Below the pieces are notes generated by a model. That model did not search any database and had not been told where the DNA came from. It was given only the letters and a program-made list of their open reading frames with translations. The position numbers were made by a program, and so were the translations under genes. From the NCBI GenBank assembly GCA_945290265.1, contig CALYQW010000009.1, positions 1 through 64,000 on the forward strand: 64,000 nt of DNA, in the 5' to 3' direction. This document shows positions 5,834-16,809 of this stretch, piece after piece. Numbering within the stretch: the stretch's first letter is position 1; each line of letters opens with the position of its first letter. The DNA is from an uncultured Erwinia sp. Its GTDB lineage: Bacteria; Pseudomonadota; Gammaproteobacteria; Enterobacterales; Enterobacteriaceae.

Positions 5834-8176
5834 TCAGAAAGCGCGCTGATAAGGCATAATGCCCTGTCGCAGCATTTCACCGGTGCCTAAGCCATAGTTC
5901 GGGCTGAGGCCACGCAGTTCAATGTTGAACGAGATTTTATTGTCGTACTGACTGTCATTGTTTTTCCAGCTGGTGATCTTACGCTCATAGCCCAGACGGA
6001 TCGCATAACAGCAGGAGCTGTACTGCACACCCAGCAGCTGATCGGCTGGCTGATTGGCTTTGGTATCGTAATACCACGCGCCCACCACTGACCAGGCATC
6101 GGCCAATGGCCAGCTGGCGGTAGCACCTACCTGCGATATCCCTTTCTGATAAAGCGGGTTGGTGTACTGGCTCAGCGTCTGCTTAACATATTCCTCGCTG
6201 GTGTAACGGTAATTAAACTGCACCATCCGGTCAGCATCCTGCCGCCACTCCAATACCGCATTCCCCTGCGAGACATTGTTCAGCCGGGTGTCATACTGCA
6301 AGCCACCGCGTGCAGCCCACTGATCGCTGATTTTCCAGTAGCTGTCGCCGGCCCAGACCAGACTACCGCGATCGTCATTACTGGTGGTATTCAGGCCGGT
6401 GCGTGCCGGGGTAAACGAATAGATTTGACCAATGGAAGCATTAAAACGTTCAACCAGATCGTTATCAAAAATACGGGTAGTGACCCCGGTGGTCACCTGG
6501 TTGGCCGACGCGATGCGATCCAGGCCGCTGTAAGTGCGGTCGCGGAACAGACCGGTATAGTCGGTTTGCAGCAGGGTTGAGTCGTAGGCACGAATATCGC
6601 TCTGATTACGATAAGGCACATACAGATACTGCATCCGTGGTTCCAGCGTCTGGGTATAGCCTGGTGACCAGTTCATATCACGGTCAAAGACCATCTTGCC
6701 GTCAACTTTAAACTGCGGCATGACCCGGTTAACGGAGTTTTTCAGCTGGTTATTACTGCTGGTAGACAGTGAATTATAGTAATCAATATCAGTCTGCTCA
6801 TAGTGCGTCGCCAGCAGTTTCGCTTCGGTATTCAGGCTGCCCCAGCCGTTAGACAGCGGCAGATTCAGCGTTGGCTCGACGTGCAGACGCGTGACATCTG
6901 GCAGATTTTGGTTCACGTTAGTGAATTTAACCGCCTGTGCATACAGGTGGGCATCGAGTGGCCCCAGGTCATTTTTATAGTAGTTAAAGTCAAACTGCGG
7001 TTCAGCACGATAGACATCATTGGTGGTTTGGGTAGAGAAAATCTGGAACTGCTTGGTAGAAAGCGTGGCATTCCAGTTATCATCGGCATAGCCGACGCTA
7101 AATTTCTGCGTCACGTAACCATCAGTGGTTGAACCGTAAGTCGAGTCCAGATCGGTAAAATAATCGGGATCGCTGGCTTTGGTGTAATCAACGTCAAAGC
7201 GCCAGTGCTTATCGTAAACGCCGGAATGACGCCAGACATACAGCCAGCGGCTGGAGTTGCTGTCATCGGGGTTTTCGTCCCGGTATTTGCGGTCAGAGCT
7301 TAAATAGTCAAACTCCATCAGACCGGCACCCGCGTCTGACAGATAGCGGAACTCGTTCTGCCACTGCATACCCCGACGACTGATATAGTGTGGTGTCAGG
7401 GTGGCGTCCGCCTGCGGTGCAATATTCCAGTAGTAAGGCAGCACAAATTCAAAGCCGCTGTTACTGCTGTATTTAGCATTGGGGATCAGAAAGCCGGAAC
7501 GGCGTTTATCACCTACCGGTAACTGCAAATAAGGGCTGTAGAAAACTGGCACCGGACCGAGCTTAAAGCGCGCGTTCCAAATCTCCAAAAGTTGTTCATC
7601 TCGGTCATGAATGATTTCCGTTCCCACCACGCTCCAGCTGTTTTGCCCCGGCAGGCAGGAAGTAAACGAACCGTTTTCCAGAATCGCGTAGCGGTTATCA
7701 CCACGCAGTTTCATCTGGTCAGCGTCACCGCGTCCCTGGCGTCCGACCATCTGGTAGTTACCGTTCCAGACGTTGGTATCTTTGGTGTTCAGATTGGACC
7801 AGGCTTTCGGGCCTTTCAGAATAATCTGGTTATCGTCATAGTGGACATTGCCCAGTGCATCCACCGTGCGTACCGGATCGGGATGCTGCGGCAGCATTTT
7901 CTGATGCAGCTGCACTTCATCTGACTGCAGACGGCTGTTCCCCTGGGTAATATCCACATTTCCGGTGAAAACCGCATTATCAGGGTAATTACCTTTGGCG
8001 TTATCAGCGTCAATATTCACCGGGAGCTGGTTGGTTTCTTTGCCCTGCACCAGTGGACGGGTATAAGCAGGGACACCCAGCATACATTGTGATGCCAGGT
8101 CATCAGCCAGAGCGTACTGGCCGTAAAGTGCTGAGCCAATCAGAGTGGCCAGCAGGGTCGGTAATCTTTTTTTCAT
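5834..8176 (-). CDS. lptD: LPS-assembly outer-membrane protein LptD
   Basis: Outer-membrane beta-barrel that, with LptE, inserts lipopolysaccharide into the outer leaflet. The 780-residue product has a signal peptide ending at about A24, an OstA/LptA-like N-terminal domain (about 50-200), and a large C-terminal barrel. The four cysteines that form the maturation disulfides are present: C31 (SQCMLG), one in FTSCLPG, and the adjacent pair in YSSCCYA near the C-terminus. I use the ATG at 8174-8176, which gives the family start [10 protein letters not shown]; upstream starts add 12 residues ahead of the signal peptide. Divergent from djlA. Confidence 0.97.
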
Positions 8177-15381: not shown

Positions 15382-15401
15382 GCATGTTTATTTATACAGT
15401 A
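15382..15401 (-). promoter_or_regulatory. Probable LexA (SOS) operator of polB
   Basis: On the minus strand the 20-mer starts TACTGTATAAATAAACAT. It matches the consensus TACTGT-N8-ACAGTA at about 15 of 20 positions, with an intact CTGT half and ACAT in place of ACAG. It lies 38-57 bp upstream of the polB GTG, and E. coli polB (dinA) is LexA-controlled. Confidence 0.75.
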
Positions 15402-15442
15402 GTGAGCTGGCGATGTTTTTTACTTCAGGATTTATCCAAAAC
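15388..15442 (+). repeat. Left copy of 55-bp imperfect direct repeat bracketing the effector island
   Basis: Two exact blocks, 11 nt (15388-15398) and 23 nt (15420-15442, containing TTCAGGATTTATCC), separated by 21 nt. The same two blocks recur at 16755-16765 and 16787-16809, again exactly 21 nt apart. This copy overlaps the polB LexA box. The middle 21 nt are only partly alike, so this is an aged duplication. Confidence 0.8.
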
Positions 15443-15631
15443 CGGGGGTGTACGGAGTTGTGGGGGAAAGCCGAAGAACTGTTTTTGCAACTGGCAAACA
15501 GCAAATGCAAAATCGATACAAAAATCTGAATTTTTTGAAGAAGACTGTTATCCATAAACGCGAATTAGTTATGCTTGACCCCCGCAACGATGTCATACAT
15601 GTGCAGTATTCTTAATACAGGGAGAGTGAGA

Positions 15632-15991
15632 ATGACGTGGACCTATAAGCAAAGCTCAGGTGAGTTATTTCATAATGGGCATTTTGTTGAAAAAGGCTAT
15701 TCTGGCCGCATGACCAATAAAAACAACCCTGAACGGCAACAGGTAAAAGGTCTGGGGCCATTACCCAGGGGAACTTATCGTATTACCGGGCAATCACGAT
15801 CTAAAGGGCCAATGACAATTATTCTGATCCAGACATCCGGGGAAGGATTTGGCAGAAGTGCTTTTCGTATACATGAAGAAAAGGTTCACGGTGTTCCTGG
15901 ATGAGCATCTGAAGGATGCATTATTATGGGGCCAGTAACCCGCAAACGCATTCTTGACTCAGGTGATACCCGACTGGAAGTAATCCGATGA
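15632..15991 (+). pseudogene. Tlde1-like T6SS peptidoglycan effector (DUF2778), interrupted by in-frame TGA
   Basis: Family knowledge: Tlde1-type effectors (DUF2778) are type VI-delivered L,D-transpeptidase-like enzymes that attack peptidoglycan precursors in the periplasm. The visible product starts at ATG 15632 (preceded by GGAGAG) as MTWTYKQSSGELFHNG. It continues through GYSG, LGPLPRGTYRI and FGRSAFRIH, all typical of the family. An in-frame TGA at 15902-15904 ends it at 90 residues. Reading on in the same frame gives ASEGCIIM, the catalytic-cysteine motif, and continues to TGA 15989-15991. The full frame would be 119 codons. The last stop overlaps the start of the next gene. AT-richer than its neighbours. 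As read, the product lacks the catalytic cysteine. Confidence 0.75.
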
Positions 15992-16515
15992 AATATGTAA
16001 CTGGTTTATTGTTTTTTTCCCTGTTCTTTGCCGGGTTCAGTTATGGCAAGACCTCTGAAAGTATAAATACCACTGAAAAAAGGGAGTTAAACTCTGTTAT
16101 TGATTGTGTGGCCAGCGGTGAACATACTTGTATAGATACATCACTAAACACCGCAGAAAGTCTTACTCTGAAAGACAGTATCAGGCTGAGAAAGGCGCTG
16201 GCACATTCCCTGATAACACATACGAACAATACGCTTGTCTTTTTTGCTGAAGTGGATAAAAGGATTGCTGAGAGAGGCCATTCTGCCATCAGAGATAACG
16301 CTGGTACGGATTCCGTCTGCGCTTATATGGTGGACAGTAGCAAATATGACAGGGTGTCCTTTTTTAAATACTATTTCATCGCCAAAACAAAGCTGGAAAA
16401 AACAGGTGCTAAAGGTAAAGCTTGCCTGGAACTGATGGATGCTTCAGTGGAAGAAATTATCTATGAAGAAAAAGCAGGGAAGATGATTTGGGGGAATAGT
16501 CAATATCCATTTTGA
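15988..16515 (+). CDS. Probable periplasmic immunity protein (Tldi1-like)
   Basis: The 175-residue product has a clear Sec signal peptide: K2, a hydrophobic stretch LLFFSLFFAGFS, and probable cleavage after SYG near residue 20. The mature part has four cysteines, compatible with disulfides. I do not recognise a domain by sequence. The immunity assignment is inferred from position: its ATG (15988-15990) overlaps the original stop of the Tlde1-like effector in an ATGA arrangement, and Tldi1 immunity proteins are periplasmic and encoded directly after the effector. The frame is intact although the effector is interrupted. Being translationally coupled, its expression may have dropped. Confidence 0.65.
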   Translation: MKYVTGLLFFSLFFAGFSYGKTSESINTTEKRELNSVIDCVASGEHTCIDTSLNTAESLTLKDSIRLRKALAHSLITHTNNTLVFFAEVDKRIAERGHSAIRDNAGTDSVCAYMVDSSKYDRVSFFKYYFIAKTKLEKTGAKGKACLELMDASVEEIIYEEKAGKMIWGNSQYPF

Positions 16516-16577
16516 TTTGGATAATCGAAGAAAGGATAGCAGGGATCCATGATGCAGCGGAATCCCTGTTGGAAATA

Positions 16578-16715
16578 TTATTCAGAGGTGGTGTCTGAAT
16601 TAGTGCTTTTTTGCATAGTTACATGATACTTGCCATCATCACGAACTAACCATTCTTTTATAATGCGCACGAAGTCCTGACGGTAGTACCCTCTGTTGAC
16701 GCGATCAGACCTGCT
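16578..16715 (-). pseudogene. Possible 3' gene remnant on the minus strand
   Basis: A 46-codon open frame with no ATG, GTG or TTG start that ends in TAA at 16578-16580. The translation looks protein-like: GYYRQDFVRIIKEWL followed by DDGKYHVTM and a Ser/Thr-rich tail. It is preceded by an in-frame stop at 16716-16718. I could not assign a family. It may be the C-terminal end of a gene lost when the island decayed, or chance. Confidence 0.3.
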
Positions 16716-16754
16716 TTACCGCAGCTAATGTTGGCTACCCCATCTCTTTGCTGA

Positions 16755-16809
16755 TTATTTATACATTTTCTGGCCGGGTATCTCTATTACTTCAGGATTT
16801 ATCCAAAAC
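16755..16809 (+). repeat. Right copy of 55-bp imperfect direct repeat
   Basis: Matches 15388-15442 in two exact blocks with identical spacing. The part equivalent to the LexA box reads ATGT-N8-TCAG on the minus strand, a degraded operator. It ends about 64 bp before yabI. The stretch 16516-16873 otherwise holds only the remnant at 16578-16715 and a weak hairpin around 16808-16835. Confidence 0.8.

What the first reader, a model, noticed from the sequence alone, without database searches (positions are those of the whole stretch)
15632..15991. Tlde1-like peptidoglycan effector stopped by TGA just before its catalytic cysteine motif
Seen: an open frame with Tlde1/DUF2778 features ends at TGA 15902, one codon before ASEGCIIM, and the same frame then runs on for 28 sense codons to TGA 15989-15991, overlapping the next ATG. 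Known: ASEGC-type motifs carry the catalytic Cys of these L,D-transpeptidase effectors. Inference: a single substitution (for example from CGA or GGA) disarmed the effector while the overlapping immunity gene survived. Alternatives: sequencing error, or UGA readthrough. The result would be a strain that is immune but unarmed.
Basis: partly seen in the sequence, partly recalled or inferred. Interest (0 to 1): 0.72.

Follow-up and report, generated by a model that had tools for sequence, protein, structure and literature searches.

The report
Disarmed bacterial weapon, shield gene kept
A bacterium of a plant-associated group carries a small gene for a cell-wall-damaging weapon used against rival bacteria that is cut short by a stop signal just before its active site, while the partner gene that protects against that weapon is still whole; this is a clear but fairly ordinary example of a known kind of event.

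Summary
Window 15632-15901 encodes the first 90 residues of a short (about 119 aa) Tlde1-domain T6SS effector (PF10908 over its cut-off). TGA 15902-15904 directly precedes ASEGCIIM, 28 sense codons follow, and TGA 15989-15991 overlaps the ATG of a 175-aa putative immunity gene. It is not a natural end: in 50 of 50 intact named relatives the frame runs on through the catalytic Cys. The effector also has Glu for the near-invariant Gly after the catalytic His. No Hcp gene lies in the window, although 51 of 57 relatives are hcp-effector-immunity cassettes. The pair forms a 1.4-kb islet between polB and dedA, flanked by a direct repeat and absent there in 29 of 29 other Erwinia loci examined. Best reading: a recently disarmed effector beside an intact, probably protective, immunity gene. 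The organism is not unarmed: its assembly has T6SS core genes and six other Tlde1 loci without a visible lesion (a seventh is frameshifted). Across 37 Erwinia genomes, loci with broken effector and unbroken immunity (11 of 60) far outnumber the reverse (1 of 60). Sequencing error and UGA read-through are not excluded. A known kind of event, here well dissected.

The parts
15385..15442 (.). left copy of a 58-nt imperfect direct repeat; begins in the A/T-rich box that relatives keep upstream of polB (LexA-like by recall, not tested)
   Evidence: 78% identical to 16752-16809; last 23 nt identical; box seen in the 11 relatives printed
15632..15901 (+). N-terminal 90 codons of a short Tlde1-domain T6SS effector, truncated
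15875..15877 (+). Glu codon at the position that is Gly in 49 of 50 intact relatives (Ala in 1), directly after the catalytic His
15902..15904 (+). in-frame TGA stop directly before the ASEGC motif
15905..15988 (+). 28 sense codons after the stop: catalytic-Cys motif ASEGCIIM and C-terminal tail; the LEV codons at 15974-15982 hold GGAAG, the likely ribosome-binding site of the next gene
15988..16515 (+). unbroken 175-aa ORF with signal-peptide-like start: putative periplasmic immunity protein, family without a Pfam name
16578..16697 (-). C-terminal remnant (39 codons and stop read) of an unidentified reverse-strand gene inside the islet
   Evidence: one search gave only weak matches (best E 0.06, annotated DNA-binding protein)
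16752..16809 (.). right copy of the flanking direct repeat

Best explanation
This is an acquired effector-immunity islet whose effector has been recently inactivated. The effector belongs to a group of short (about 118-123 aa) Tlde1-domain proteins that are usually encoded right behind an Hcp gene and are presumed to ride in the Hcp tube into a neighbour's periplasm, where an L,D-transpeptidase-like Cys/His site alters peptidoglycan. In the window no hcp is present and translation stops directly before the Cys motif, so the product has no nucleophile and should not work. The overlapping immunity gene has its own ATG, and its likely ribosome-binding site lies in the last effector codons, downstream of the stop, so it can still be made and most likely protects the cell against related effectors of rivals. 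Shown: anatomy, stop, conservation in relatives, missing hcp, islet position. Inferred: loss of activity, Hcp loading, horizontal acquisition, protection, recency.
For: PF10908 match over cut-off. 50 of 50 intact named relatives have a sense codon at the stop column and the Cys, and 50 of 50 have an ORF of at least 141 aa starting in an ATGA/GTGA overlap. The immunity ORF is unbroken and 40-47% identical to the partners of the five closest intact effectors. Unusual His-Glu in place of His-Gly. Hcp within 1.5 kb upstream in 51 of 57 relatives, none in the window by tblastn. Islet absent from the polB-dedA gap in 29 of 29 other loci examined; flanking direct repeat. Lesions of this kind are common in the family: 19 of 60 Erwinia short-Tlde1 loci have a broken effector, 11 of these with an unbroken immunity ORF; 1 of 41 intact-effector loci lacks an unbroken immunity ORF. 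Recency: the window's dN to its five nearest relatives (piece 1, 0.09-0.12) is like that between the distant pairs of those relatives (0.09-0.13), and no further stop or frameshift lies after the TGA.
Against: One draft assembly carries the stop; no second strain was found. The effector shows no general rate excess, which fits a very recent lesion but also an error. Immunity function is inferred from position and family only; no credible Pfam or PDB match. The immunity ORF lacks a Pro that at least 90% of the 30 aligned proteins have; its ribosome-binding core (GAAG) is a weaker kind, seen in 6 of 50; and a terminator-like hairpin lies right after the TGA (15905-15919; 1 found, 1.3 expected by shuffling), so the stop might lower expression of the immunity gene.
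Confidence: 0.74

Rival explanations
1. Ordinary decay: the effector died, and the immunity gene is merely not yet broken and gives no present benefit.
For: In 8 of 19 broken-effector Erwinia loci no unbroken immunity ORF is recognised either, so both members do decay; the window lesion looks recent.
Against: Members of the immunity family without a short-effector match nearby exist in the genus (G021:C3:2329544, G004:C1:1071043 and 1071595; one search held), which hints at retention; but no selection test was possible on the single window copy.
Confidence: 0.22
2. Sequencing or assembly error created the TGA in a working effector gene.
For: Only one draft assembly; the residues after the stop are still conserved; no overall rate excess.
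Against: A substitution error in a given 360-base gene is rare in modern assemblies (general knowledge), whereas broken effectors are common in this family (19 of 60). The gene also has a second odd change at a near-invariant site and no hcp partner.
Confidence: 0.08
3. UGA is read through at a low level, or as selenocysteine, giving some full-length effector.
For: UGA is the leakiest stop (general knowledge); the frame stays open and conserved; the genome has a tRNA-Sec gene (67.9 bits, gathering score 47); 72 nt around the stop fold slightly better than shuffles (z -1.4, 16 of 200 shuffles as good).
Against: No SECIS-like Rfam match; relatives have an aromatic residue, not Cys or Ser, at this column (50 of 50); z -1.4 is not significant; the missing hcp and the His-Gly change argue that function is gone.
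Confidence: 0.06

Closest known systems
Tlde1 family T6SS effectors (Tlde1a of Salmonella; DUF2778, PF10908)
   Same: Tlde1 domain with a His ... S-x-G-C active-site block; immunity gene next to it
   Different: The window member is of a short, usually Hcp-linked type (about 118-123 aa in 50 intact relatives); a profile of 16 such proteins finds no PDB chain at E up to 1, so the type is well diverged from solved structures; here it is truncated before the Cys
Orphan T6SS immunity genes and immunity arrays (Vibrio cholerae, PMC5361080, passages; rAID of Bacteroidales, PMC12247911, passages; S. Typhi islet, PMC7400221, abstract)
   Same: Immunity gene kept where its own effector is absent or useless
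   Different: For V. cholerae the proposed main route is displacement of effectors by incoming modules; here the effector is still in place and broken by a stop, in an isolated islet outside the T6SS cluster
hcp-tlde1-immunity cassettes of Pantoea and Erwinia (e.g. plasmid NZ_CP077368.1: tssD, tlde1 domain-containing protein, hypothetical protein)
   Same: Same effector group (86.7% over piece 1) and immunity family (50.3% over 84%)
   Different: The cassette is complete there; the window copy lacks hcp and has the stop

Membership tests
Tlde1 (PF10908) effector | profile match over the curated cut-off | tested here: met
   34.7 bits vs 30.1 for piece 1 alone; 42.2 bits for the locus with one TGA inside
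Tlde1 (PF10908) effector | catalytic His and Cys in the translated product | tested here: not met
   His is present (residue 81) but followed by Glu; the Cys lies after the TGA
Tlde1 (PF10908) effector | peptidoglycan L,D-carboxypeptidase/transpeptidase activity and T6SS export | not testable with these tools
   no experiment; expected absent without the Cys
Hcp-linked effector-immunity cassette | hcp directly upstream | tested here: not met
   51 of 57 relatives have it within 1.5 kb, 50 of these with a piece ending at most 46 bp before the effector; none in the window
Hcp-linked effector-immunity cassette | immunity ORF overlapping the effector stop (ATGA/GTGA) | tested here: met
   window 15988; 50 of 50 intact named relatives
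orphan T6SS immunity gene | unbroken immunity gene without a working cognate effector | tested here: met
   at sequence level: 175-aa ORF unbroken, its effector truncated, one match of the immunity profile in the assembly
orphan T6SS immunity gene | protects against a related effector | not testable with these tools
   needs an assay

The most novel reading that the evidence does not exclude
In Erwinia and relatives, short Hcp-linked Tlde1 cassettes are repeatedly converted in place into immunity-only loci by stops, frameshifts and deletions inside the effector, and this route is favoured because the immunity gene's ribosome-binding site is written into the effector's last conserved codons (LEV; GAGG or GGAGG in 40 of 50), so that point lesions disarm the cell while leaving protection translatable.
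Probability: 0.35. Interest if true: 0.45.

Novelty: new member of a known kind. Interest (0 to 1): 0.3.

Why it matters
Orphan immunity genes have been explained by displacement or transfer of effector modules (PMC5361080). This locus catches an earlier state: effector still present but cut by one stop, immunity whole, in an isolated islet. With the genus count (11 effector-only against 1 immunity-only lesion) it makes the order of decay of weapon and shield countable. It also marks PF10908 annotations that would overstate a strain's arsenal, and an immunity family that has no Pfam name.

Tried and rejected
Natural shorter isoform: rejected, 0 of 50 intact named relatives end at this codon. 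Hcp 3' remnant upstream of the effector: local alignment scores did not exceed the best of 200 shuffles for any of six relatives. Another copy of the islet flanks: none in 37 Erwinia genomes for 15400-15640 or 16513-16760, apart from the 23-nt repeat. E. coli genomes: no match. SECIS or other Rfam element: only a chance snoRNA hit at E 0.85. Reverse-strand remnant 16578-16697: only weak matches. dN/dS on the single window copy: dS high or not computable, so used only as a rate comparison. Promoter scan: 3 sites found, 3.4 expected, none in front of the effector. A literature search for T6SS + effector + 'premature stop codon' + 'immunity gene' (7 papers, listing only) showed no title or abstract start that describes this locus; nothing outside the held library was searched.

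Counting notes. One search gave 67 rows; I merged 4 split rows and dropped 3 rows that hit long-type Tlde1 loci, leaving 60 loci. 41 have an intact effector (39 checked in one loop, 2 beside it): 40 with and 1 without (G018:C31, frameshift in the signal-peptide region) an unbroken immunity ORF. 19 are broken: 11 with an unbroken immunity ORF (the window; L163, L064, L070, L220, L152, L212, L221, L027, L218; G021:C3:4366106), 8 where none was recognised with the 74 immunity proteins used as queries (L028, L066, L213-L217, L219; an unknown immunity family would be missed). Immunity matches in L152 and L221 are weak (33%, 28%). L027 lacks only the first 9 residues and any start codon in front of them. 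Some species share near-identical loci (G002 and G035), so loci are not all independent; the binomial 0.0008 (11 of 12) ignores this. In the named set of 57 50 are intact, 6 broken with an unbroken immunity frame (L099, L100, L104, L112, L125, L129; L100's ORF as called starts late), and L130 was dropped because no immunity gene was recognised; L104 and L129 are the same loci as G012:C61 and G007:C4. Relatives' lengths are counted from the match start.

Full report
What is there. Window 15632-15901 reads as 90 codons and stops at TGA 15902-15904; the frame then runs 28 sense codons (15905-15988) through ASEGCIIM to TGA 15989-15991, which overlaps the ATG at 15988 of a 175-codon ORF. Piece 1 alone matches Pfam PF10908 (Tlde1_dom; DUF2778 by recall and in plasmid annotation) at 34.7 bits against a cut-off of 30.1; piece 2 has no match; the 175-aa ORF has none over a cut-off.

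Where it is. The window is contig C9 of a 3.44-Mb, 62-contig assembly, 98% complete. The pair lies between polB and a dedA-family gene. In 29 of 29 other Erwinia dedA loci examined (30 loci fetched with its own, of 37 genomes with the gene) the pair is absent from the 1.5 kb upstream of dedA; 28 of the 29 have the polB start there, 19 of them about 148-175 bp away. The islet is bounded by a 58-nt direct repeat (15385-15442 and 16752-16809, 78%; the last 23 nt identical), and its flanks have no other copy in the 37 genomes. Insertion by recombination at the repeat is an inference.

Is the stop natural? A scan of named genomes gave 57 relatives. In the 50 intact ones (50 distinct proteins, 118-123 aa from the match start) the stop column is always a sense codon with an aromatic residue, the Cys is present in 50 of 50, and an ORF of at least 141 aa begins in an ATGA (43) or GTGA (7) overlap. 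Piece 1 is 83-88% identical to the effectors of E. endophytica, Mangrovibacter phragmitis, Pantoea agglomerans and Erwinia sp. ErVv1. So the TGA is a lesion, or an error, in a gene that is longer in these relatives. The finding's own refutation test did not refute it.

Other signs of lost function. The residue after the catalytic His is Gly in 49 of 50 and Ala in 1, but Glu in the window. In 51 of 57 relatives an Hcp match lies within 1.5 kb upstream on the same strand, in 50 of these with a piece ending at most 46 bp before the effector; tblastn with the same Hcp finds none in the 64-kb window, and no hcp remnant is detectable upstream. In P. agglomerans NZ_CP077368.1 the order is annotated tssD, tlde1 domain-containing protein, hypothetical protein. 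The motif HXX14-17-(S/T)HGC with catalytic Cys is given for Tlde1a in PMC9638812 (passages read). That a product without the Cys is inactive is inference from that work.

Why the shield can survive. The last effector codons carry GAGG or GGAGG shortly before the immunity start in 40 of 50 relatives and GAAG in 6; the window has GGAAG. This site lies after the TGA and is intact, so the immunity gene can be initiated on its own. Loss of coupling, a weaker site and a terminator-like hairpin right after the TGA (no more than chance) may lower its expression (inference). The 30 aligned immunity proteins share two invariant Cys, and a signal-peptide-like start is seen by eye; they have no Pfam family beyond single weak hits and no credible PDB relative.

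How recent. Nonsynonymous distances from window piece 1 to its five nearest relatives (0.09-0.12; piece 2 0.09-0.17) are like those between the distant pairs of these relatives (0.09-0.13; close pairs 0.02-0.03), and no second stop or frameshift lies beyond the TGA. So the lesion is recent, or it is an error. The immunity gene is more diverged (dN 0.42-0.56) with dS above 1.6 or not computable.

Is the strain unarmed? No. The assembly has 8 Tlde1-domain loci. Besides the window copy, the C61 copy is broken by a frameshift at a run of eight A and it too keeps an unbroken immunity ORF; the other six show no stop inside the match. T6SS core genes are present on C30 (TssA, B, C, F, G, J, K, L, M, Hcp and a ClpV-like ATPase); VgrG, PAAR and TssE were not checked.

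How common is this state? In 37 Erwinia genomes I grouped into 60 short-Tlde1 loci: 40 with both genes unbroken, 11 with the effector broken and immunity unbroken, 8 with the effector broken and no unbroken immunity ORF recognised, and 1 with the effector unbroken and immunity frameshifted (G018:C31). If first lesions fell by gene length, 11 of 12 on the effector has a probability of 0.0008, with the caveat that loci are not all independent. Outside Erwinia four named loci are further effector-only lesions (L099, L100, L112, L125). L112 (Chimaeribacter californicus) is a close parallel: an in-frame stop in the effector and an unbroken immunity gene. The asymmetry is what toxin-immunity dependence predicts; orphan immunity genes are established in print (PMC5361080, passages; PMC12247911, passages; PMC7400221, abstract).

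Alternatives. A sequencing error cannot be excluded from one assembly, but broken copies are common in this family and this copy has other marks of disuse. Selenocysteine is unlikely: a tRNA-Sec gene exists, but no SECIS-like element was found and relatives do not have Cys or Ser at the column. Low-level UGA read-through remains possible and untested.

Verdict. Interpretation: effector disarmed and immunity kept, yes at this locus; strain unarmed, no. It is a new member of a known kind.

Noticed in passing
G000:C61:403-767 (L163): Second short Tlde1 effector in the same genome is frameshifted at a run of eight A, with an unbroken 113-aa overlapping immunity ORF of another family; homopolymer, so slippage or sequencing error is possible.
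   Followed up: partly
L102 6246-7718; L112 6360-7793 (Chimaeribacter): The immunity ORF is 491/478 aa as called and seems to hold three tandem immunity domains behind one effector (the effector is broken in L112).
   Followed up: no
L125 about 5920-6279 (Rahnella sp. AA): A deletion seems to have fused the first residues of an Hcp in frame to the Tlde1 domain from residue 27 on; the immunity ORF is unbroken.
   Followed up: no
last codons of short Tlde1 genes, e.g. window 15974-15982: The conserved C-terminal LEV codons seem to double as the Shine-Dalgarno site of the immunity gene (GAGG/GGAGG in 40 of 50).
   Followed up: partly
G018:C31 (L057): The only one of 41 effector-intact Erwinia loci without an unbroken immunity ORF: frameshift in the signal-peptide region, near a run of T.
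   Followed up: partly
window 15385-15442 and 16752-16809: The direct repeat flanking the islet includes the polB-side A/T-rich box; the second copy of the box is degenerate.
   Followed up: partly
L196/L197 about 287-1363: Two Erwinia genomes carry an unrelated 356-aa ORF (membrane-protein-like by eye) in the same polB-dedA gap, so this gap accepts other insertions.
   Followed up: no
G021:C3:2329544, G004:C1:1071043 and 1071595: Members of the immunity family without a short-effector match nearby: candidate orphan immunity genes, tandem in G004.
   Followed up: no
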